Assembly (NCBI GenBank): GCA_030614305.1
Contig: JAUWKH010000008.1
Location: 1 to 18,959 of the forward strand
DNA from: Bacteroidota bacterium
GTDB lineage: Bacteria; Bacteroidota; Bacteroidia; Bacteroidales; JADFUO01
Length of the DNA stretch: 18,959 bases
Direction: 5' to 3'
Below, one piece after another: positions 1,191 through 15,962 of the stretch (the stretch's first letter is position 1; each line of letters starts with the position of its first letter). Below the pieces are notes generated by a model. The model had not been told where the DNA came from. It worked only from the letters and a program-made list of their open reading frames with translations, and did no database searches. Made by a program: the position numbers and the translations under genes.

Positions 1191-2000
1191 ATGAAATCCA
1201 AATTGAAAAAATACATTCCCTCTGCATTAGGATATAAAATCAAAGAAATAAGGCAAAAAATACTGGGGTTTTATTATTCAGGCACAAATTATTATTGTCC
1301 TTTTTGCAAAAAAAGTTTTAGGAAAATGCTTACCGGTGGTTCTAAACATCCGGTTTTGGAAGAGAAGCAAATCATAGGAAGCGGATACAGGCAAAATTGT
1401 GTTTGTCCCAAATGTTTATCAACCGACCGTGACAGATTGATATTTTTATATCTGAAAGAAAAAACAAATATTTTCAGCGAAAAACTAAAAGTGCTTCATA
1501 TTTCTCCTTCAATAAGTCTTAAGAAATTTATATCTTCGCTTCCAAATATTGACTATACAACCGGAATAAAATATCACGAGGGATTTTATTATTCAAAAAA
1601 TTCAGCAATTTTGGATATAACTGACATTCCTTTTAAAAATAATGAATTTGATATTATTATCTGTAATCATGTTCTTGAACACATTCTTGATGATAAAAAG
1701 GCCATGACAGAATTATTTAGAGTTTTGAAACCGGATGGCTGGGCAATTCTTCAGGTACCAATTTCTCATATTCTTAAAACAACTTATGAAGATAAAAATA
1801 TAACAACAACAAAAGAAAGGGAAAAATATTTCGGTCAGTTTGACCACGTCAGAATTTATGGTCAGGATTACATAAAAAGATTGGAAGATGTTGGTTTTAA
1901 AGTCGAAACACATAATCCAAACAAAGAAAATTGGGGAATTAGTGATATTACAAAGTATGCAATCAATCCCGACGAAGATATTTTTATAGCAAGAAAATAA
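1191..2000 (+). CDS. Zinc-ribbon class I SAM-dependent methyltransferase
   Basis: 269 aa. The N-terminal part has a zinc-ribbon-like set of cysteines: CPFC at C36/C39 and CVCPKC at C70/C72/C75. A Rossmann-type methyltransferase domain follows. The VLHISPS segment near residue 101 stands where the SAM-binding motif I is expected. FDIIICNHVLEHI (153-165) is the motif typical of the Methyltransf_11 group, and FRVLKPDGW (176-184) is the following strand-loop. Small-molecule, glycan or lipid methylation is usual for this group, and proteins of this build are often found in surface polysaccharide clusters of Bacteroidota, but no glycosyltransferase is nearby. The substrate is unknown. The kinase gene begins only 14 nt downstream, so the two may share a transcript. 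The ATG start directly follows the repeat-containing gap; no clear ribosome binding site is seen. Confidence 0.8.
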   Translation: MKSKLKKYIPSALGYKIKEIRQKILGFYYSGTNYYCPFCKKSFRKMLTGGSKHPVLEEKQIIGSGYRQNCVCPKCLSTDRDRLIFLYLKEKTNIFSEKLKVLHISPSISLKKFISSLPNIDYTTGIKYHEGFYYSKNSAILDITDIPFKNNEFDIIICNHVLEHILDDKKAMTELFRVLKPDGWAILQVPISHILKTTYEDKNITTTKEREKYFGQFDHVRIYGQDYIKRLEDVGFKVETHNPNKENWGISDITKYAINPDEDIFIARK

Positions 2001-2014
2001 TTAATACACATGTC

Positions 2015-4642
2015 ATGAAAAAATTTGCTTTATTGCTTTTTTCAATTATAATTGCCTGTTTAAATGTTATCGGTAATATTCCGGAAAACACTCACAAATC
2101 AAAAATTGACAGCCTTGAAAATATTTTAAAGCAAACTGCCGGTACAAAAAAAATTAAGGTTCTTAATGATTTGTCATATGCATACTTAAATGTATCTCCA
2201 CAAAAAAGCATTGAATATGGTGATTCAGCCTTAATATTAGCAATTACTTCAAATAATAAAAACGAACAAATTATTGCAATAAGTGTAACTGGATTAGCAT
2301 ATTACTTATTAAATGATACTTGTAAACTATTGAATAATTATATAAGATTATTGAATTTATATGAAGAAACAAACAATAAATTTCAAATAGAAAGAGCCCC
2401 AGATAACCTTAATGAAATGTTTTACGATTACTTAAGCAAATACGACGATTTTTTAGAAACCAATTTACTTATTTCAAAAATTGAAGAAGAACTGAAAGAC
2501 TATAAACAAATTGCAGATTTATTGAGCGACATAGGTAATGCATATTATTACATGAGTAATTATGATAAGGCACTTAAATATCTAAAAAAAGCCCTGCAGG
2601 TTGCTCAGAATTCTAACGATAGTAAAAAAGCAGCACAAATCTATAATAAGATAGGTTTAGTATACATAAAATTGAAAGAATTTGAAAATGCAACTTTGTA
2701 CTTCCAGCCTTCTCTAATTATTTTTAAGGAATTAAATGATCAATATGGAACTGCTACAGTTTTAAACAATATTGGCAACGAATACTTTTTAAAGAAGGAT
2801 TATGATAAAGCTATGGATAACTATCAAAAATCTCTGAAAATCAGCAGCGAATCAGGAAATAAAGGTATTACAGCAAACTCATTAAAAAATATTGGTGAAA
2901 TTTATATTCATGAAATAAAATTCAATGATGCTATAACATACTTTGAAGAAGCTATTACAAATGCCAGGCAGATTAATTCATTTGTATTTCTACTTGACAT
3001 TTGTAATACTTTATCAGAACTGTATAAAAAGATTAGTAACTATGAAAAATCACTTGAATATTCTAATCTTTATCGGTCAATAAATGATTCTCTTTACAGG
3101 GCAGAAAGCCAAAGACAAGTTGGTGGATTCGACTTTAAAAAAAATATTCAAAAAATTGATAACGAACATGAAATACTTCAGAAAGATAATAAAATTCAGG
3201 CTTTGGAAGTATCAGGAATCCGTAATATTATTATTCTAACAATTACTATTTCAATATTAATACTGATACTTTTTATAATTATTTACAGTCGTTATCGTAT
3301 AAAAACCAAATCAAATAAATTATTAACCGAAAAAAACACACAAATTGAAGAACTAAAAAAAGAGTTAGAAATCCTTAATGATGATCTTAAAGAAAAAACA
3401 AAAGAAGGTACTAAAAAATTACAGGATGAAATTGACGAACTAAAAAAAGTTGATGTTAAAAGAAAAAAAGTATTAAAAAATGCAGAAGATACTATATACA
3501 TCAAAAACAACTTCCTTGCAAATATGAGTCAAGAAATCAGAACACCGTTAAACGGAATAATTGGGTTTTCAAACCTATTAACTACCGAACTTTCATTACT
3601 TGAAAATCATGAACTTTACGAATATGCAGATGGAATTGAACAAAGTGGTAGCCGACTGCTTCATTTATTGAACAACATTATTGACATCAGCAGAATTGAA
3701 GCTAATGATATGGAGCTAATAATTGCTCCAAGTGATATAAATGAAGTAATTAAAAATATTTCAGAACTTTATAGATTCAAAGCAAATGAAAAAGGACTGA
3801 AATTTAATATTAAATATAATAAAATCCCAAAAGCAATTGCCGATGGAGCTTGTTTGACAAAAATAATAAGCGATGTAATTGATAATGCAATAAAATATAC
3901 AGATAAAGGATTTATTAATGTTATTACTGATTACAAGCCTGAAGAAAATCAGGTTCTTATCATTGTCAAAGATACAGGTATTGGAATTGATGAAGCATTT
4001 CTTAAGCACATTTTTGAGCCATTCAGGCAGGAGAGTCTGGGGTTTTCACGCGAATTACAGGGAGCAGGATTAGGTTTGCCTATTGCAAAAAAACTATTAG
4101 AACTTATGAATGGCAAAGTTAAAGTTGAATCAAAAAAAACCATTGGTACATCCGTTACTATTTTTCTAAATATTGCTGAAACTGATACATCACTTGAAGT
4201 TGAACCTAAAGCAGTCAAAGAAATCGTAACTTTAGAAGATAAACCCGAAAAAGATAAGATTGATATTTTTATTGTTGAAGATGACAGGATGAACAGAATA
4301 GTCCTTGAAAAAATGCTGGAAAAAACCTCTAACAATATTTCGGCAGTTGATGGAGATGAAACAATTAAAATTATAGGTGAAAACTATAAAAAAGGAAAAA
4401 TATTTGAAATTATGCTGTTTGATATTAATTTGCCTGCTCCATGGGATGGTATTAAACTAATGAAAGAAATCAAAAAAAGATGGCACGAATATAACAAAGT
4501 TCCATTTATTGCTCAGACAGCTTATGCTATGGCAGGCGACAGAGAACGATTATTAGAAGCCGGTTTTGATAATTATATTGCTAAACCTGTTAATAAAAAA
4601 GAGTTAATTAATATGATATATAATCAACTGAAAATATTTTGA
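2015..4642 (+). CDS. TPR hybrid histidine kinase lacking the phospho-accepting His
   Basis: 875 aa. A Sec-type signal sequence (residues 1-20) precedes a periplasmic TPR sensor (about 55-380, with NYDKALKYLKKAL-type units), one TM helix (about 405-428) and a coiled coil (430-500). The dimerisation/phospho-acceptor helix starts at ~500. The HATPase domain has DNAIKYT at 623, DTGIGI at 653 and GAGLGLPIAKK at 683, and the C-terminal receiver has the acidic pair E755/D756 with D757, phospho-acceptor D803, and Thr in AQTAY and Lys in AKPVN. The H-box reads FLANMSQEIRTPLNGIIGF: Gln506 (CAA, 3530-3532) replaces the His of the family and of its neighbour. Autophosphorylation on the usual site should therefore be impossible, although ATP binding and the receiver look intact. 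It is about 72 residues longer than its paralogue, from an extra degenerate TPR-like stretch after residue ~65. It may act as a pseudokinase, a heterodimer partner or a scaffold. Confidence 0.9.
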   Translation: MKKFALLLFSIIIACLNVIGNIPENTHKSKIDSLENILKQTAGTKKIKVLNDLSYAYLNVSPQKSIEYGDSALILAITSNNKNEQIIAISVTGLAYYLLNDTCKLLNNYIRLLNLYEETNNKFQIERAPDNLNEMFYDYLSKYDDFLETNLLISKIEEELKDYKQIADLLSDIGNAYYYMSNYDKALKYLKKALQVAQNSNDSKKAAQIYNKIGLVYIKLKEFENATLYFQPSLIIFKELNDQYGTATVLNNIGNEYFLKKDYDKAMDNYQKSLKISSESGNKGITANSLKNIGEIYIHEIKFNDAITYFEEAITNARQINSFVFLLDICNTLSELYKKISNYEKSLEYSNLYRSINDSLYRAESQRQVGGFDFKKNIQKIDNEHEILQKDNKIQALEVSGIRNIIILTITISILILILFIIIYSRYRIKTKSNKLLTEKNTQIEELKKELEILNDDLKEKTKEGTKKLQDEIDELKKVDVKRKKVLKNAEDTIYIKNNFLANMSQEIRTPLNGIIGFSNLLTTELSLLENHELYEYADGIEQSGSRLLHLLNNIIDISRIEANDMELIIAPSDINEVIKNISELYRFKANEKGLKFNIKYNKIPKAIADGACLTKIISDVIDNAIKYTDKGFINVITDYKPEENQVLIIVKDTGIGIDEAFLKHIFEPFRQESLGFSRELQGAGLGLPIAKKLLELMNGKVKVESKKTIGTSVTIFLNIAETDTSLEVEPKAVKEIVTLEDKPEKDKIDIFIVEDDRMNRIVLEKMLEKTSNNISAVDGDETIKIIGENYKKGKIFEIMLFDINLPAPWDGIKLMKEIKKRWHEYNKVPFIAQTAYAMAGDRERLLEAGFDNYIAKPVNKKELINMIYNQLKIF

Positions 4643-4685
4643 TTTAAGTGATTATAAATCCTGAAAAATATAAATAGGACAGCAG

Positions 4686-4755
4686 TCAGCAGTATGCGAT
4701 TGACTGGGGACTGAGGACTGACCCCGAAAGCTTTCGGGGGAAGACTGGGGACTGA
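4686..4755. repeat. Heptameric tandem array with embedded 18-bp palindrome, copy 2
   Basis: TCAGCAG (4686-4692) is followed by three heptamers at 4701-4721 (TGACTGG, GGACTGA, GGACTGA), the palindrome CCCCGAAAGCTTTCGGGG at 4722-4739, a GA spacer and two heptamers at 4742-4755 (AGACTGG, GGACTGA). The order three heptamers, palindrome, GA, heptamers is the same as in the copy at 999-1130. It fills most of the 139-bp gap between the two paralogous kinase genes. Confidence 0.85.
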
Positions 4756-4781
4756 AATAATTTGTAATAAATACACTCACC

Positions 4782-7193
4782 ATGAAAAGATTTTATTTAT
4801 TGTTTTTTTCAATTCTGTTAACCTGTTTAAATGCTAATGGTGAATTTCAGAATACTTCCATCTCAAAAACAGACAGCCTTAAGAATCTTTTGAAACTAAG
4901 TTCGGATACTAACCAAATAAACATTCTGATTGAACTCTCGTCAGCTTATCTGAGCATATCACCACAAAAAAGTATTGAATATGGTGATTCAGCTTTAGCT
5001 TTAGCACTTAATTATGATAATAAAAACAAACAAATTAAAGCATTAAATAATATTGGGAATATTTACTGTTACATGAAAAATTATGATAAAGCACTTGAGC
5101 ATTTTAAAAAAGCTCTTCAAATTGCCCAGGATTTAGGCGACAGCGAAGGGGTAGCTCAGTTTCTTAATAATATTGGTATAATATATACCGAAAACCAAGA
5201 ATTTGAAAGTGCAATCTTATATTATCAATCATCTTTAATCATATACCAAGAAGCTGATAATAAACGTGGTATAGCTTCGATTTTAAATAATATCGGTTAC
5301 ATATTTTTTGTTCAGGGTGATTTTGAAAACGCAATGCAGAACTACCAAAAGTCGCAGAAAATTAGTCGTGAATTAGGCGATCAATGGGACATTGCAAACA
5401 CATTAAGAAACATAGGCGGAATTTATTTAGAACAAGGTAAATATTATGATGCTTTACCGTATTTTAAAGAATCATTAAATATTGCCCGTGAAATCGGTTC
5501 AAACGAACTTTTGCAGAACTGTTATCACACATTATCAGAACTCTATCTTGAGAAAAAAAATTATAAAAAATCACTCGAATATTTCAGATTATATTCAGCA
5601 ATCAAAGATTCAATTTACACAGACGAAACCGGCAAAAAAATTGCTGAATTGCAACTTGGATATGAAATTCAGAAGAAAGATAAAGAAAATGAGATACTTC
5701 AGAAAAATAACGAAATTCAAACTCTGAAAATTAAAAGAAGCCGTAACATTAATATCCTGATAATAGCTATCTTATTACTTATCCTGCTACTTATTTTATA
5801 TATTTACAGCAGATATCGTGTAAAAATTCGAACAAACAAATTATTAAACGAAAAAAACGAACATATAGAAAAAATCAATCAGGAGCTAAAAAATTTCAAC
5901 GATAAGCTTGAAACAAAAGTCAATGAACGTACCAAAGCATTGCAGGAAGAAATTTCAGAACGCAGACAAGTTGACATTGATCTAAAAAAAGCATTAAAAA
6001 ATGCAGAAGATGCCAACTATCTCAAAAATGCTTTCCTTGCAAATATGAGCCATGAGATCAGAACCCCGTTGAACGGAATTATTGGATTTTCAAGTCTGTT
6101 GGCTTCCGAACTGTCTATACGTGAGGATCCCGAACTTTATGAATATGCAGAAGGTATAGAAAAAAGTGGTGACCGCTTGCTTCATTTATTGAATAATATT
6201 CTTGACATCAGTAGAATTGAAGCAAATGATATGGAAATAAAATTAGCTCCATGCCAAACAAATGAAATAGTAAAAAACATTTCCGAACTTTATAGCTTTA
6301 AGGCAAATGAAAAAGGACTAATACTAAATGCAAAATTTAATGAGATTCCCAATGCAATTGCCGACGAAGTTAATTTAACCAAAATTATAAGCGATGTAAT
6401 TGATAATGCCATAAAATATACTGTAAAAGGATTTATCAATGTTATTACAGATTATGACCCGGAAGAAAACCAAGTCTTGATAATGATTAAAGATACAGGA
6501 ATTGGAATTGATGAATCATATCTGAAACATATTTTTGAAACATTCAGTCAGGAAAGCCTGGGATATTCACGTGAATTTCAGGGTGCAGGTTTAGGTTTAC
6601 CTCTGGCAAAAAGAGTAATAGAACTTATGGGAGGCAAAATTAAAGTTGAATCTAAAAAATCAGAAGGTACAACCGTTACACTCTTTATTAACGCTGAAAC
6701 TGAAGAATCAATTGATACTATACCTCAGATTAAAAAAGAAATTGTAACTTTGAAAGATAAAATTGAAAAAGATAAAATTGATATTTTTATTGTTGAAGAT
6801 GATAAGATGAACAGGATGGTAATTGAAAAAATGCTTGATAAAATCGGAAACAATACTTCGGCAGTTGATGGAGAAGAAACAATAAAAATTATCGGTGAAA
6901 ACTATAAAAAAGGAAAGATATTTGAAATTATGCTGTTTGATATTAATTTGCCGGCTCCATGGGATGGTATTAAACTAAAGAACGAAATCAAAAAAAGATG
7001 GCCCGAATACAAAAATATCCCATTTGTTGCACAAACAGCTTATGCAATGAGTGGTGACAAAGAACGTTTATTAGAAGCCGGTTTTGATAGCTACATTTCC
7101 AAGCCGGTAAATAAAAACAAACTTATTAACATAATATACAATCAACTGAAAATATTTAAAAAATCAAAAATCAAAATCAATGAGTACAGATAA
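4782..7193 (+). CDS. TPR-sensor hybrid histidine kinase
   Basis: 803 aa, paralogue of the upstream kinase. It has a signal sequence (1-20), periplasmic TPR repeats (about 55-270; NYDKALEHFKKALQIAQ is a clear unit), a TM helix (about 323-343) and a coiled coil with NERTKALQEEISERRQ. The HisKA domain has an intact H-box, FLANMSHEIRTPLNGIIGF, with His424. The HATPase domain has DNAIKYT, DTGIGI and GAGLGLPLAKR, and the receiver has a VEDD acidic pocket, D720 as phospho-acceptor and Lys in SKPVN. TPR-sensor hybrid kinases are common in Bacteroidota; the ligand is unknown. The receiver DNA is almost identical to that of the upstream gene (99 of 103 nt by eye, 4381-4483 against 6899-7001), pointing to recent duplication or gene conversion. 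The C-terminus has an extra basic tail ([11 protein letters not shown]) that runs 14 nt into the next kinase gene, which suggests coupled translation. Confidence 0.92.
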   Translation: MKRFYLLFFSILLTCLNANGEFQNTSISKTDSLKNLLKLSSDTNQINILIELSSAYLSISPQKSIEYGDSALALALNYDNKNKQIKALNNIGNIYCYMKNYDKALEHFKKALQIAQDLGDSEGVAQFLNNIGIIYTENQEFESAILYYQSSLIIYQEADNKRGIASILNNIGYIFFVQGDFENAMQNYQKSQKISRELGDQWDIANTLRNIGGIYLEQGKYYDALPYFKESLNIAREIGSNELLQNCYHTLSELYLEKKNYKKSLEYFRLYSAIKDSIYTDETGKKIAELQLGYEIQKKDKENEILQKNNEIQTLKIKRSRNINILIIAILLLILLLILYIYSRYRVKIRTNKLLNEKNEHIEKINQELKNFNDKLETKVNERTKALQEEISERRQVDIDLKKALKNAEDANYLKNAFLANMSHEIRTPLNGIIGFSSLLASELSIREDPELYEYAEGIEKSGDRLLHLLNNILDISRIEANDMEIKLAPCQTNEIVKNISELYSFKANEKGLILNAKFNEIPNAIADEVNLTKIISDVIDNAIKYTVKGFINVITDYDPEENQVLIMIKDTGIGIDESYLKHIFETFSQESLGYSREFQGAGLGLPLAKRVIELMGGKIKVESKKSEGTTVTLFINAETEESIDTIPQIKKEIVTLKDKIEKDKIDIFIVEDDKMNRMVIEKMLDKIGNNTSAVDGEETIKIIGENYKKGKIFEIMLFDINLPAPWDGIKLKNEIKKRWPEYKNIPFVAQTAYAMSGDKERLLEAGFDSYISKPVNKNKLINIIYNQLKIFKKSKIKINEYR

Positions 7194-8421
7194 ATCAAAA
7201 GAAGAATTTTTGAAGGAAATTTCCAATTTAAACAAAAAAATTCAACAATTGGAAACCGATCTTTCAAATACCAGGGAAAAGGCTGATATTTCAAACCGTT
7301 TAAAATCTATGTTTTTGGCAAACATCAGTCATGAAATTCGTACTCCAATGAACGGAATCATTGGGATGTATAATGTTTTGAAGCAAACCGAATTAACTGA
7401 CGTTCAACGTGAATACCTTAATATTATCAATTTATCAGGCAATAACCTTTTAACAATTATTGATGATATACTTGACCTGGCAAAAATAGAATCCGGACAG
7501 TTAGAGCTTGAACATAATATTTTCAGTTTAAAGAATGAATTAAACCATGTAATAACCCTGCTAAAAGATAAGGCAAAAGGCAAAGGAATTGAACTGTTTT
7601 ATAAAACTTCACCTGAAATACCAGATTCATTAATTGGCGACCAGACAAGATTAAAACAAATAATAATTAACCTTGCCAATAATGCTATTAAATATACCAA
7701 AGAGGGTAGCGTTTCAATTGAGATTGAATTATTGAACCTTAAAAATAATATTGCAGAATTAAAATTGAGTATAATTGATACGGGTATCGGCATATCTCAT
7801 GAAGATAAAGAAAAGCTATTTAAAGCGTTTTCTCAAATTGATTCTTCCACAACTCGTAAATATGGTGGAACAGGCTTGGGTCTTGCAATTTCAAAACATT
7901 TATCATCACTTATGAATGGTAATATTGGTGTTGACAGCGTTGTAGGAAAAGGCTCCACATTCTGGTTCACAGCTCATCTTGAAGTAGATTCTGTAATTGA
8001 TACACCTTCTGAAACAAAATTAACAAAAGGACATAAAGAACAAAAAGAACGGTTAAGCATCCTCTTAGTTGAAGATAATTTACTTAATCAAAAATTTGCT
8101 TCAGCAACACTTAGAAAAGAAGGATATAATATTGATATAGCTGAAAATGGAAAAATTGCACTTGAAAAATATAAAAATAATAATTACGACCTGATATTGA
8201 TGGATATCCAAATGCCGGTTATGGATGGTATTGAAGCAACAAAGGAAATTCGTGCTATTGAAGACAAAAATAATATTAAGGATAAAATTAAAATAATCGC
8301 CATCACAGCTTATGTTATTGAAAAAGACAGAAAGATGTGTTTGACTGCAGGAATGGACGAATACCTTGCCAAACCCTTTAAACCAAAAGAATTAATAGAT
8401 TTAATTGATTATGTAATGTAA
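7180..8421 (+). CDS. Soluble hybrid histidine kinase (HisKA-HATPase-receiver)
   Basis: 413 aa with no signal peptide or TM helix, so it is predicted cytoplasmic. A short N-terminal coiled coil (about 5-40) leads into the H-box [19 protein letters not shown] with His51. The HATPase domain has NNAIKYT, DTGIGI and [12 protein letters not shown]. The receiver has [10 protein letters not shown] (E298/D299), phospho-acceptor D342 in [10 protein letters not shown], Thr in AITAY and Lys in AKPF. No sensory domain other than the coiled coil is present, so its input may come from a partner, perhaps the two membrane kinases upstream. The ATG overlaps the end of the preceding kinase gene by 14 nt. It is less similar to the two upstream kinases than they are to each other. 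There is no output domain and no HPt protein in the window. The gene ends 13 nt from a convergent gene. Confidence 0.92.
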
Positions 8422-8434
8422 ACTTCTTAAGTAC

Positions 8435-9763
8435 CTAATTCACTTCCAACAACTCCACTTCAAAAACCAAAGGAGTAAACGGTGGAATATCTTTCCCTTT
8501 TCCTCTTTCACCATATCCGATTATTGAAGGAATAATAAACCTGGCTTTGCCTCCTTCATTCATCATCGAAACACCTTCATCCCATCCTCTGATAACCTGG
8601 CCTTTTCCTAATGTGAATTCAAACGGTTGTTCGCCGTCAAGTGACGATTGAAGCTTTGTACCATCTGTTAAATAAAGGGTATAATGTACCTTAACTTTTT
8701 TCCCACTTTCTGCTTTTTCGCCGGTACCTTTTATGGTTTCAATGTAATACAAGCCGTCTTTAGCAGGTTTTGATGTAATATTATTGTCTTTAATATATTT
8801 ATTTATTTTCGTTTTTTCTATATTCATCAATTTTTGATTTTCAGCTTTTTGTTTTTCTCTTTCTAATGCTTTTTCCTTATCAAATTCAGCTTTTGAGCGA
8901 ACATCAATAATTTCAACATCATATAAAAGAGTAGTAAATGGAGATATAACTCCTCCCCTTCCCATTTCTCCAAAAGCAATACTTGAAGGTACTATTAAGT
9001 TTGCTTTTCCACCTTTTTTCATTTTTCCTAAGGCTTCTTCAAGTCCCTCTGTATCAAACTTTTTACCGTATTCAATTTCAATTGGTTCGCCTCTATCTCT
9101 TGTAGAAAATACTTTATTGCCATTTATTGTATTAATTGTAAAATGAATTTTAACATAATTGCCGGTATCAATTCTTGATCCTTTACCTTTTTTTGTTACA
9201 ATATAGTATAATCCTGATTCTGTGGGCTTAGTAGTAATTTTATTATCATTAAGGTATAATTTCAATTTTTCCCCTTCTTCAATTTTTAACATAGCATTTC
9301 TTTCCTGCTCTTCTTTTTTAACTTCTTCTTCTGTTTGAATACCATTAAGCTTTACATTAAAATACAAAACACTATTACTGTCAATAAATGGAGGTAGCTT
9401 AGGTGATCTGGCAGTTATATGAAAAAATGAATCAGCACTAATAATAAAAGTTGCACTATCACCAACCGACAAGTAAGTCAGAGCTTCATAAAAATCACCT
9501 TTAAACTGAGGTTCAATAATAGGTATCTGAACAGGGCGTTTTGATTTAATACTACTGAATATAATTGAATCTTTTGAACCGTATTCCATATCAATATCAA
9601 CAATATCGCTAAGAACAGGCTTTAAAGTATCGTTCGAAACATGAATTTTATAATACAAACCCGTATCGGTTTTTTTAAAACCCGGATATTTTGAATCACA
9701 TGCACTGAAAATTAAAACTGATGCCACTAAAACTGACAAATAACTTTTAATACTTTTTTTCAT
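8435..9763 (-). CDS. Lipoprotein with three FKBP-type peptidyl-prolyl isomerase domains
   Basis: 442 aa. A signal peptide ends in a lipobox-like SAC with Cys22, so it is probably a lipidated envelope protein. Three FKBP-like units follow: about 33-142, 185-290 and 336-442, separated by charged, Lys/Glu-rich linkers (145-170 and 292-318). Domain 3 has the full FKBP pattern: KVHYTLYLTDG, VIRGWDEGV with W394, YGERG and PLVFEVEL. Domain 2 keeps the fold signature, but the binding-pocket Trp is Leu (TEGLEEAL) and the YG Tyr is Phe (AFGEMG). Domain 1 is recognisable only by its outline. So probably only the last domain isomerises proline bonds, and the others may bind client proteins. The likely role is folding of periplasmic or outer-membrane proteins. 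It lies 33 nt downstream of the PorT-like barrel gene on the same strand, probably co-transcribed. Confidence 0.88.
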   Translation of the reverse strand: MKKSIKSYLSVLVASVLIFSACDSKYPGFKKTDTGLYYKIHVSNDTLKPVLSDIVDIDMEYGSKDSIIFSSIKSKRPVQIPIIEPQFKGDFYEALTYLSVGDSATFIISADSFFHITARSPKLPPFIDSNSVLYFNVKLNGIQTEEEVKKEEQERNAMLKIEEGEKLKLYLNDNKITTKPTESGLYYIVTKKGKGSRIDTGNYVKIHFTINTINGNKVFSTRDRGEPIEIEYGKKFDTEGLEEALGKMKKGGKANLIVPSSIAFGEMGRGGVISPFTTLLYDVEIIDVRSKAEFDKEKALEREKQKAENQKLMNIEKTKINKYIKDNNITSKPAKDGLYYIETIKGTGEKAESGKKVKVHYTLYLTDGTKLQSSLDGEQPFEFTLGKGQVIRGWDEGVSMMNEGGKARFIIPSIIGYGERGKGKDIPPFTPLVFEVELLEVN

Positions 9764-14273: not shown

Positions 14274-15962
14274 TTAATCCTTAATCAATCTGCTTACTGA
14301 AACATCATTATTTGAAATAATCTTCATTAAATAAATTCCGGAAGGTATTTCAGATAAATTATTTATAGCTAATTTATTTAATCCTGAAGTATTTAATTTT
14401 TTGGTAATTGAAAGTGCTTTTTTACCTGTAATATCATAGATTTCGATTAAAACAGAAGAATTATCATCTTTATTATTATAAACAATATTAATGTAATTTT
14501 TAAAAGGAAGAGGATAGACATTTATAATATTATTTTGAATAGAAACCGGGATTTCAATAACAGACAACATATCATTTGCTTCAACATAATCAGGGATTCC
14601 ATAACCTAAAAATTCATCGGGATTTGAAGCTTGACTACCGCTTTGCTGGATTGCATTAGTTATTTCCATGTTTTTCATAGAAGGATTTGCCTGCCACAGA
14701 CAAGCAGTCATACCGGCAATTACAGGAGAGGAAAAAGAAGTTCCGTTTCCTTGAGCAATACCGCCATAAGGGCTTGCAAATGTAGTTCCTTCACCTTGTG
14801 CTACAACATTTGGTTTTATTCTGCCATCATAAGTTGGTCCGTGTGAACTAAAACTTGTATAAATTCCGGCGCCATTTACAGCACCTATTGCAAATACACT
14901 GTCGCCATCAGCTGGAGCTCCAATATAATACCAGGAACTGGTTCCTGAGTTACCTGCACTATTAACAACAATAATTCCTTTACTTGCAGCAAAGTCAGCG
15001 CCTCGTGTAACAGGAGTGGTATTACCATCCATATCTTGATAAGTATGGTTATGATCAGGATTATCAAATTCGGTATAACCAAGCGATGAATTTATTATAT
15101 CAGCACCTGCACTGTCGGCAAATTCAGCAGCAGAAACCCAGTTATATTCTTCAATTAAAGTTTCCGAGCCACCATCTTCCGAACGTAACAGCCAATAAGA
15201 AGCTTTTGGTGCAGTACCAATAATTTCACCGGGCAGATTTGCTCCCATAATTGAAAGTACGCAAGTCCCGTGAGTATGTTTATCAAAAGTAATAGTGCCT
15301 CCGTCAACAAAATCATGTGTACCTAATATCTGATTATTATTCCATAAGCTGTCAAAAGCCGGTAAAGTATTGACGCTCAGGAAGCCGGCATCAAGTACTG
15401 CAATTGTTTTTCCCTCTCCGCTATAACCCATTTCATGCAAAACATCTCCCATTATCATATGAATCTGATTATAAGAAGCACCATAATCAAAATAATCGCT
15501 GCCTTTATATTGCGAACTGCCTGAAGGTTTTGCAGGAAATATTGATTCATTAGCAAAAAACGGCTTTTCAATAATTTCATTTTCAAGACCATCTGATTTA
15601 TTTTTGTTTTTTAGAACAGTTTGAACAAAAGGAAGTGCATTTATCTGTGCCAGGGCATTCGGGTCGGTTGTATAAATTGTTATTCCGTTAAACCATTTGT
15701 TCCTGTTTAAAACAGTAACTCCGATTTCCGCAACTTCTTCAACATAAGAAGGATTTACCGGCAAATCATTTTCAACTATGCTTATCCCCTGGTTAGATCT
15801 TCTGTCAATTGCTTTTTGAGAAAGAAACTCTGACGGATTACCAATTGAATAAGGTGAATTATTCTTATCAGTAAACTGAACAAAATATTTATCGGGTGAA
15901 ATTTGAGAAAACCCAATATAACTTATTAGAATACAAACGATTAAAATATTTATTTTCTTCAT
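14274..15962 (-). CDS. Subtilisin-like (S8) serine protease with T9SS sorting domain
   Basis: 562 aa. A signal peptide ends near Ser19/Gln20 (YIGFSQ). An inhibitor-like propeptide region (about 22-120: KYFVQFTDKNN, LSQKAIDRR, NGITIYT) is typical of Bacteroidota members. The peptidase domain has the full triad: D191 in IAVLDAGF, H231 in KHTHGTCV and S409 in GNGTSFSSP, with oxyanion Asn338 in NSAGNSG. The C-terminal ~85 residues (from about 478, NVYPLPFKN to SVSRLIKD) form a T9SS type A sorting domain; the usual YPNP reads YPLP. It should be exported to the cell surface or medium and process or degrade proteins. It is transcribed alone, with a consensus promoter and dyad upstream. Confidence 0.93.
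   Translation of the reverse strand: MKKINILIVCILISYIGFSQISPDKYFVQFTDKNNSPYSIGNPSEFLSQKAIDRRSNQGISIVENDLPVNPSYVEEVAEIGVTVLNRNKWFNGITIYTTDPNALAQINALPFVQTVLKNKNKSDGLENEIIEKPFFANESIFPAKPSGSSQYKGSDYFDYGASYNQIHMIMGDVLHEMGYSGEGKTIAVLDAGFLSVNTLPAFDSLWNNNQILGTHDFVDGGTITFDKHTHGTCVLSIMGANLPGEIIGTAPKASYWLLRSEDGGSETLIEEYNWVSAAEFADSAGADIINSSLGYTEFDNPDHNHTYQDMDGNTTPVTRGADFAASKGIIVVNSAGNSGTSSWYYIGAPADGDSVFAIGAVNGAGIYTSFSSHGPTYDGRIKPNVVAQGEGTTFASPYGGIAQGNGTSFSSPVIAGMTACLWQANPSMKNMEITNAIQQSGSQASNPDEFLGYGIPDYVEANDMLSVIEIPVSIQNNIINVYPLPFKNYINIVYNNKDDNSSVLIEIYDITGKKALSITKKLNTSGLNKLAINNLSEIPSGIYLMKIISNNDVSVSRLIKD

What the first reader, a model, noticed from the sequence alone, without database searches (positions are those of the whole stretch)
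3482..3565. Hybrid histidine kinase with His-to-Gln change at the phosphorylation site, next to an intact paralogue
The H-box of the first kinase reads NMSQEIRTPLN (Gln506, codon CAA at 3530-3532), while its tandem paralogue reads NMSHEIRTPLN (codon CAT at 6051-6053). A single transversion separates them. All ATPase motifs and the receiver Asp803, Thr and Lys are kept, and the reading frame is intact. HisKA kinases need this His for autophosphorylation, so the protein may be a pseudokinase that dimerises with the paralogue, senses through its longer TPR domain and lends its receiver. A degenerate histidine kinase kept beside its active copy is uncommon and suggests a decoy or modulating role.
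Basis: partly seen in the sequence, partly recalled or inferred. Interest (0 to 1): 0.7.

Follow-up and report, generated by a model that had tools for sequence, protein, structure and literature searches.

The report
Kinase-dead sensor beside its active twin
A bacterial sensor protein has lost the one amino acid it needs to switch itself on, yet is kept nearly unchanged beside its working twin, and relatives have lost the same residue more than once in the same gene pair, so the inactive form probably has a job of its own.

Summary
HK1 (2015-4642) has Gln506 (CAA, 3530-3532) at the phosphoacceptor site; its tandem paralogue HK2 has His424. It is not a sequencing error: a congener's orthologue (86% identical) has the same codon and gene order, while six HK2-clade proteins have His. 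HK1's kinase core is under purifying selection (DHp dN/dS 0.075, ATPase domain 0.18), as HK2's is.

The main new result lies outside the window. In 47 genomes (46 of this order) the TPR kinase sits in a cassette, methyltransferase - TPR hybrid kinase - short hybrid kinase (HK3), complete in 40. Outside this genus there is one TPR kinase, usually with His. Its His was lost at least three times: Gln here, Ser in 11 genomes, Arg in 3. HK3's H-box is altered or gone in 16 of 44. The receiver Asp was never seen lost (49 of 49 TPR-kinase rows, 43 of 43 readable HK3 rows). All 16 His-less rows keep the E..T phosphatase motif; the Ser clades change ATP-site residues.

Best reading: a DivL-like pseudokinase that keeps its docking/phosphatase surface and receiver and modulates HK2/HK3. 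Biochemistry untested. The "longer TPR" is probably ancestral; HK2 shortened.

The parts
1191..2000 (+). SAM-dependent methyltransferase gene, upstream neighbour in the cassette; ends 14 nt before HK1
   Evidence: Pfam Methyltransf_11; methyltransferase, TPR kinase(s) and HK3 adjacent in 40 of 47 stretches (39 by script, G432 added because only an overlapping frame intervenes)
2015..4642 (+). HK1: TPR hybrid histidine kinase, 875 aa, His-less
2513..3055 (+). HK1 TPR region recognised by Pfam (about residues 167-347)
3503..3703 (+). HK1 HisKA (DHp) domain, residues 497-563
   Evidence: Pfam PF00512, 63.1 bits, cut-off 26.9;
3530..3532 (+). codon CAA, Gln506 in place of the phosphoacceptor His; Glu507 and Thr510 kept
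   Evidence: same codon in L041
3851..4171 (+). HK1 HATPase_c (CA) domain, N/G1/F/G2 motifs intact
4265..4618 (+). HK1 receiver domain with Asp803, Thr, Lys
4643..4781 (+). HK1-HK2 spacer with GACTGGGGACTGA repeats and an 18-bp palindrome; differs in the congener
4782..7193 (+). HK2: TPR hybrid histidine kinase, 803 aa, with His; TPR array shorter than HK1's
6051..6053 (+). codon CAT, phosphoacceptor His424 of HK2
7180..8421 (+). HK3: short hybrid kinase (HisKA-HATPase-receiver), 413 aa, all motifs present here; start overlaps HK2's end by 14 nt

Best explanation
HK1 is a conserved histidine-kinase pseudokinase made by tandem duplication of the single TPR hybrid kinase of a methyltransferase / TPR kinase / HK3 cassette (supported by tree and gene order). 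It should not be able to phosphorylate itself at the usual site (follows from HisKA chemistry; not assayed). It keeps the DHp surface, including the Glu-x-x-Thr motif, and a complete receiver (shown by sequence). I infer that it sits in the membrane with HK2 and HK3, binds or dephosphorylates receivers in answer to its TPR input, and takes phosphoryl groups on its own Asp803 from HK2, HK3 or an HPt protein. It would thus lower or retune the output of the active kinases, as DivL does for CckA or RetS for GacS. The DHp/receiver side, rather than the ATPase, is the more likely seat of function, because the Ser clades of the same family change conserved ATP-site residues but none of the tested receiver sites and keep the E..T motif.
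For: Gln506 is in the orthologue of a second species at 86% aa identity, in the same gene order. Tree: HK1 pair 100/99, HK2 clade 100/99, the two together 100/97, inside a family of mostly His-bearing single-copy kinases. dN/dS of HK1 between species: DHp 0.075, CA 0.177, receiver 0.220 (NG86); HK2: 0.069, 0.198, 0.124. With a control that defines conserved sites without the clade tested, both HK1 rows depart at 1 of 101 core sites besides 506 (L690I); HK2 departs at 1 of 102. Parallel losses: Ser in 11 and Arg in 3 genomes, with silent codon changes while the residue stays (TCA/TCC/TCG/TCT; AGA/CGC). All 16 His-less rows keep Glu(+1), Thr(+4), the N-box Asn, G1 Asp and Gly, and receiver Asp, Thr and Lys. 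ATP-domain sites: each Ser clade departs at 4 of 30, nine His-bearing clades at 0-2 of 30-32, among them F667 to L/M, Q672, S674 and G685 to R. Published: CrdS H371A loses kinase activity but keeps most phosphatase activity (RR~P half-life 2.6 min, 0.7 with wild type, 53.5 alone), and the Asn/Thr at +4 is what phosphatase needs (PMC3510030, passages). DivL is described as keeping H, N, G1, F and G2 boxes with Tyr for His (PMC4211667, passages).
Against: Only two species carry the Gln form; in congeners G002 and G003 (77 and 82% complete) no orthologue of HK1, HK3 or the methyltransferase was found. HK1's whole-gene dN/dS (0.36/0.31) is above HK2's (0.215/0.225), and its membrane/coiled-coil stretch is at 0.9-1.5 over 90 codons: partial relaxation is possible. 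The case for DHp over ATPase is uneven: mean ATPase-to-receiver divergence in the Ser clades (1.61, 1.30) barely exceeds His-bearing clades (0.97-1.56); conserved DHp sites also change in His-less clades (3, 2 and 6 of 33 in the two Ser clades and the Arg clade, against 0-4 in His-bearing ones), and the Arg clade departs at only 1 of 30 ATPase sites. DivL is said to lack both kinase and phosphatase activity though it keeps its boxes, so motif retention does not prove phosphatase activity; PleC H610A lost both (PMC3510030). In the three Arg genomes HK3 is also altered, so 'one active kinase always remains' fails there.
Confidence: 0.5

Rival explanations
1. Trans-phosphorylation: HK1's intact ATPase domain phosphorylates His424 of HK2 in an HK1-HK2 heterodimer; HK1 is a sensor-controlled ATP donor.
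For: CA domain intact and constrained (dN/dS 0.177); DHp 80% identical to HK2, so heterodimers are plausible. The Arg clade too keeps its ATPase sites (1 of 30 changed).
Against: The two Ser clades change ATP-site residues, G685 to R in the five g210 rows. No direct test of heterodimers.
Confidence: 0.2
2. Receiver donor or phosphate sink only: HK1 persists as a membrane-tethered receiver fed by HK2, HK3 or an HPt protein; its DHp-CA is scaffold.
For: Receiver Asp/Thr/Lys kept in 49 of 49 TPR-kinase rows and 43 of 43 readable HK3 rows; gene 3 is a receiver alone in L061; matches to the HPt family in 12 of 12 genomes searched.
Against: HK1's DHp has the lowest dN/dS of its domains; a pure receiver donor would let DHp decay, as HK3 does in a group of nine relatives (mean identity DHp 0.318, receiver 0.610).
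Confidence: 0.17
3. Recent loss of function: the duplicate is an early pseudogene and Gln506 is neutral.
For: Only two species; whole-gene dN/dS above HK2's, fast membrane/coiled-coil stretch.
Against: Frame intact in both species, core dN/dS 0.08-0.22, core sites as conserved as HK2's; parallel His-less clades on longer stems than HK1's (0.66, 0.62 and 0.43 against 0.27).
Confidence: 0.1
4. Assembly or sequencing error.
For: G001's counterpart record is a MAG, and the window's genome is a 413-contig draft.
Against: Same CAA codon in two species whose genes differ at 14% of residues.
Confidence: 0.01

Closest known systems
DivL of Caulobacter crescentus (pseudo-histidine kinase acting on CckA)
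   Same: Phosphoacceptor His replaced (Tyr; Ala in one homologue), replacement conserved in homologues, other HK boxes kept, works beside an active hybrid kinase (PMC4211667 passages; PMC12189002 passage).
   Different: DivL is PAS-based and, as recalled, has no receiver of its own; HK1 is a TPR hybrid kinase, a tandem duplicate of its presumed partner. No sequence comparison with DivL was made.
CCNA_03265 (CC3162) of Caulobacter, hybrid kinase lacking the His but keeping the receiver Asp
   Same: Hybrid kinase, His missing, Asp kept; its authors consider heterodimers or phosphorylation from an HPt (PMC11481889 passage).
   Different: One protein, no tandem partner mentioned in the passage read; an alternative His (H151) is proposed there, whereas HK1's only conserved His in the DHp helices, H550, is shared with HK2.
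ChrS pseudokinase of Corynebacterium glutamicum
   Same: An inactive kinase promotes signalling through its active paralogue; native ChrS-HrrS heterodimers in a two-hybrid assay (PMC9491836, abstract and Discussion).
   Different: Arose in the laboratory by a frameshift in the ATPase domain; the truncated form gave no two-hybrid signal; [quoted passage not shown]
RetS-GacS of Pseudomonas aeruginosa
   Same: Hybrid kinases of which one controls the other by heterodimers and dephosphorylation (PMC12189002 passage).
   Different: Not a His-less tandem copy; genes not adjacent (both recalled).
FimS-type TPR sensor kinase (Porphyromonas)
   Same: TPR input and histidine kinase core (recalled; papers seen as a listing only); NCBIfam's FimS model hits HK2 at 177.4 and HK1 at 126.5 bits.
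   Different: Far under the model's cut-off of 600, so not FimS; HK1/HK2 carry receivers.

Membership tests
HisKA hybrid histidine kinase (Pfam HisKA + HATPase_c + Response_reg) | the three domains in order, above Pfam cut-offs | tested here: met
   HK1: 63.1, 83.8 and 66.4 bits against 26.9, 26.4 and 30.2
HisKA hybrid histidine kinase (Pfam HisKA + HATPase_c + Response_reg) | phosphoacceptor His in the H-box | tested here: not met
   Gln506; hence not a working kinase of this family by sequence
Histidine-kinase pseudokinase (DivL-like in mechanism) | non-His residue at the site conserved among orthologues | tested here: met
   Gln in 2 of 2 orthologues; Ser in 11 and Arg in 3 genomes in parallel cases
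Histidine-kinase pseudokinase (DivL-like in mechanism) | domains and other boxes retained under selection | tested here: met
   fold by sequence match only
Histidine-kinase pseudokinase (DivL-like in mechanism) | no autokinase activity; binds or acts on a phosphorylated receiver or a partner kinase | not testable with these tools
   needs protein work
DivL family proper | homology to DivL as an orthologue | not tested
   no DivL sequence was compared; architecture differs (TPR, receiver), so no membership is claimed
FimS | score above NCBIfam NF053520 cut-off (600) | tested here: not met
   HK1 126.5, HK2 177.4 bits

The most novel reading that the evidence does not exclude
The cassette is a receiver-centred module whose kinase activity is dispensable and interchangeable between its two proteins. 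The phosphoacceptor His has been lost at least three times in the TPR kinase and once or twice in HK3, the receiver Asp in no row seen, and in the Arg/Gln genomes (G284, G399, G394) both proteins lack the His. Such a module would be charged from outside, for example backwards from an HPt protein, and would act on polysaccharide synthesis or export by protein contact rather than through DNA; HK1 is a fresh, still nearly perfect case of that conversion.
Probability: 0.2. Interest if true: 0.78.

Novelty: new variant of a known kind. Interest (0 to 1): 0.58.

Why it matters
DivL is the natural histidine-kinase pseudokinase that the papers seen here return to. Here one syntenic gene pair offers natural replicates of the conversion, apparently from fresh (Gln, core intact) to further gone (Ser, ATP site changing) to complete (gene 3 reduced to a receiver in one genome). 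That makes testable what a histidine kinase is still good for without its histidine. It also warns that calling hybrid kinases active from domain hits alone fails in this family.

Tried and rejected
Sequencing error: rejected by the second species. 'Longer TPR as a new sensor': rejected as far as the data go; relatives with one TPR kinase have 870-879 aa and HK2's array shrank, with different breakpoints in the two species. A substitute His near the site: H532 is Gln in the orthologue; H550 is shared with HK2. Two independent His-to-Ser losses: the best tree separates the two Ser clades, but holding them together is not rejected (p-AU 0.186) and both share A563S, so I count one Ser loss at least. 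HK3: two changes on the TPR-kinase tree, with an unsure backbone. Conserved-site comparison: its reference set was the His-bearing rows themselves, which favours them, so I repeated it leaving each tested clade out; the report uses the latter for counts. Promoter/terminator scan: 50 promoter-like sites against 41.3 expected and 3 terminators against 2.9, no use. Pfam on the 30-codon frame in the congener's spacer: no match. Pattern for codons not beginning with C at the His position: 19 matches in 17 of 295 genomes, one of them the G284 Arg kinase; I did not check which others are kinases.

Literature: seven searches (open-licence PMC only, capped listings of 8-25 papers) listed no paper that by title or abstract start deals with this cassette or with repeated loss of the His in one gene pair. 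Passages or sections were read only for the papers cited.

Dropped before counting: L057-L060 are taken to be the same genomes as L041, L106, L043 and L108 (equal contig lengths) and were left out of the 47; L062-L066 were not used. I fetched 36 stretches out of a longer list, so more cassettes may exist. Non-cassette TPR kinases served as outgroup (six rows: L052, L053, L112, L113, L116, L117) or were not used (L055, L056, L119, L122-L125). G401's HK3 and the TPR kinases of G408 and G434 are cut by contig ends. Of the 47, seven lack a flanking gene: G079, G100, G408 and G434 at contig ends, G023 without the methyltransferase, G346 and G393 without HK3. Family searches were aimed at clades where I had already seen Arg and Ser, so 16 of 47 rows is not a rate; the step before gave 4 non-His in 27 TPR-kinase rows and 12 altered or deleted in 23 HK3 rows.

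Full report
WHAT IS THERE. The window holds three adjacent sensor kinase genes on the plus strand behind a methyltransferase gene. HK1 (2015-4642) and HK2 (4782-7193) are TPR-membrane-HisKA-HATPase-receiver proteins (the membrane segment is read by eye). HK3 (7180-8421) is a short HisKA-HATPase-receiver protein whose start overlaps HK2's end. HK1's H-box reads NMSQEIRTPLN with codon CAA at 3530-3532; HK2's reads NMSHEIRTPLN with CAT at 6051-6053.

NOT AN ERROR. The only close orthologue found (P0002; genome G001, contig of 42,157 bases, the same length as JAUXFX010000004.1, a Bacteroidota MAG, CSMAG_2914) is 86% identical over its whole length and has Gln506, also CAA. Its neighbours are methyltransferase, HK1, HK2, HK3 and FKBP in the same order. 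Six HK2-clade proteins (P0003-P0008, P0007 being the window's own) have His. In two other congeners (77% and 82% complete) HK1 and the methyltransferase have no orthologue and HK3 only weak matches (38-40%), so they cannot be used.

SELECTION. Between window and G001, NG86 dN/dS is 0.356 for HK1 and 0.215 for HK2. By domain, HK1 against HK2: DHp 0.075 and 0.069, ATPase 0.177 and 0.198, receiver 0.220 and 0.124, TPR part 0.403 and 0.269, membrane/coiled coil 1.53 and 0.154 (YN00 for the last: 0.93 and 0.25). HK1's core is thus held much as HK2's is, while its input and linker change faster. At core sites conserved in His-bearing kinases of other clades, HK1 departs at 1 of 101 (L690I, besides 506) and HK2 at 1 of 102.

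WHERE IT CAME FROM. A search of 393 genomes of the order found matches to the TPR-kinase alignment (E up to 1e-100) in 70. I fetched 36 stretches, most of the best matches and some weaker ones, and read their gene order. With two families added I have 47 genomes (46 of the order, one named Bacteroidetes MAG, L061) and 49 TPR-kinase rows. Methyltransferase, TPR kinase and HK3 are adjacent in 40 of 47. A secreted beta-helix protein is seen in 33 and a glycosyltransferase or hexapeptide transferase in 27 of the 47 stretches, which differ in length (domains). That suggests a cell-surface polysaccharide cluster; the substance is unknown. The window's contig begins in the beta-helix gene, so nothing further upstream is seen; in G001 no match to the glycosyltransferase references lies in the stretch fetched. 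Only the window's genus has two TPR kinases in the cassette (2 of 47 genomes). The tree puts HK1 (2 rows) and HK2 (5 rows) together (100/97) inside mostly His-bearing single-copy kinases. The duplication therefore came before the two species split, and the His was lost in the upstream copy.

THE SAME LOSS ELSEWHERE. Of 47 TPR-kinase rows readable at the site, 31 have His, 2 Gln, 11 Ser and 3 Arg. Ser and Arg are kept through silent changes (TCA, TCC, TCG, TCT; AGA, CGC), so the new residue itself seems to be held. Parsimony needs four changes in the cassette clade, three if the Ser clades are one (not rejected, p-AU 0.186). One outgroup TPR kinase (G255) has Gln as well. HK3 is intact (H, E, T at 0, +1, +4) in 28 of 44 genomes with the gene, altered in 15 (in three of these the His itself stays and its neighbour is lost) and reduced to a 131-aa receiver in one. 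Where a TPR kinase has Ser or Gln, HK3 is intact (13 of 13); where it has Arg, HK3 is altered too (3 of 3). Against all this, receiver Asp, Thr and Lys are present in 49 of 49 TPR-kinase rows and 43 of 43 readable HK3 rows.

WHAT IS KEPT HINTS AT WHAT IT DOES. All 16 His-less TPR kinases keep Glu at +1 and Thr at +4; the altered HK3s keep Thr at +4 in 1 of 15. In the HisKA kinase CrdS, replacing the His abolishes kinase activity with a modest loss of phosphatase activity, and the Asn/Thr at +4 is the phosphatase residue (PMC3510030, passages). In both Ser clades conserved ATP-domain sites change more (4 of 30 each) than in nine His-bearing clades (0-2 of 30-32), while conserved receiver sites do not change (0 of 38). 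This speaks for a DHp/receiver function rather than ATP donation. Against it: mean ATPase divergence relative to the receiver in the Ser clades (1.61, 1.30) is about that of His-bearing clades (0.97-1.56); conserved DHp sites also change in His-less clades (3, 2 and 6 of 33; His-bearing 0-4); and the Arg clade changes its DHp (6 of 33) but hardly its ATPase sites (1 of 30). HK1 sits on the shortest stem of the His-less clades (0.27 against 0.43-0.66) and its ATP site is untouched.

HOW IT PROBABLY WORKS. Shown: shared loss in two species, constrained core, motif retention, parallel loss, conserved receivers. Inferred: HK1 associates with HK2 (DHp 80% identical) or HK3, docks or dephosphorylates their receivers under TPR control, and carries phosphate on Asp803 when charged by them or by an HPt protein; HPt matches occur in all 12 genomes searched. 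I saw no DNA-binding output domain in the three kinases, so the output is either an HPt relay or direct contact; a single-domain receiver that acts directly on an exopolysaccharide enzyme is known in Myxococcus (PMC12802240: title and start of abstract, passages).

COMPARISON. It works most like DivL (PMC4211667, passages) and resembles CCNA_03265, a hybrid kinase lacking the His but keeping the Asp (PMC11481889, passage), the laboratory-made ChrS pseudokinase (PMC9491836, abstract and Discussion) and RetS-GacS (PMC12189002, passage). It is not claimed as a member of any of these families. New, as far as the listings of searches show, is a syntenic kinase pair in which the His is lost more than once while the receivers stay.

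LIMITS. Draft genomes, two species for Gln, no structure, no biochemistry, clade sampling partly aimed at known cases, and an uncertain tree backbone.

Noticed in passing
7180-8421 and its orthologues in L045-L050, L054, L061, L110, L114, L115, L121, L134-L137: HK3, the third gene, has all motifs here but is altered at the H-box in 15 of 44 genomes (Tyr, Asn, Gln, Glu, or His with the acidic neighbour lost) and is a receiver alone in L061.
   Followed up: yes
4643-4781 and L041:10832-11169: The HK1-HK2 spacer holds GACTGGGGACTGA-type repeats and the palindrome CCCCGAAAGCTTTCGGGG; in the congener the same spacer holds a different insert, 21-nt inverted repeats 154 nt apart round a 30-codon frame without a Pfam match.
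   Followed up: partly
4782-7193: HK2's TPR array is shorter than HK1's and than that of full-length relatives, with different deletion points in the two species; P0003 of the HK2 clade has full length.
   Followed up: partly
L117/L159 (G255), L156 (G263), L160 (G117), L161 (G283): Four other kinases with Gln at the H-box; G255's is a TPR hybrid kinase outside the cassette, and those of G263 and G283 look changed in the ATPase part as well, read by eye.
   Followed up: partly
L051, L118, L139-L149, L151-L154: In family f100 the TPR kinase has lost most of the TPR part (about 470-500 aa) whether it carries His or Ser; the second Ser group has a Gly-to-Arg change in the G2 loop.
   Followed up: partly
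8435-9763: FKBP gene with three FKBP domains, on the opposite strand behind HK3; one to four FKBP-like genes sit at this place in several relatives.
   Followed up: no
14274-15962 and 19-945: Subtilase and beta-helix proteins, both with a Por secretion C-terminal sorting domain.
   Followed up: no
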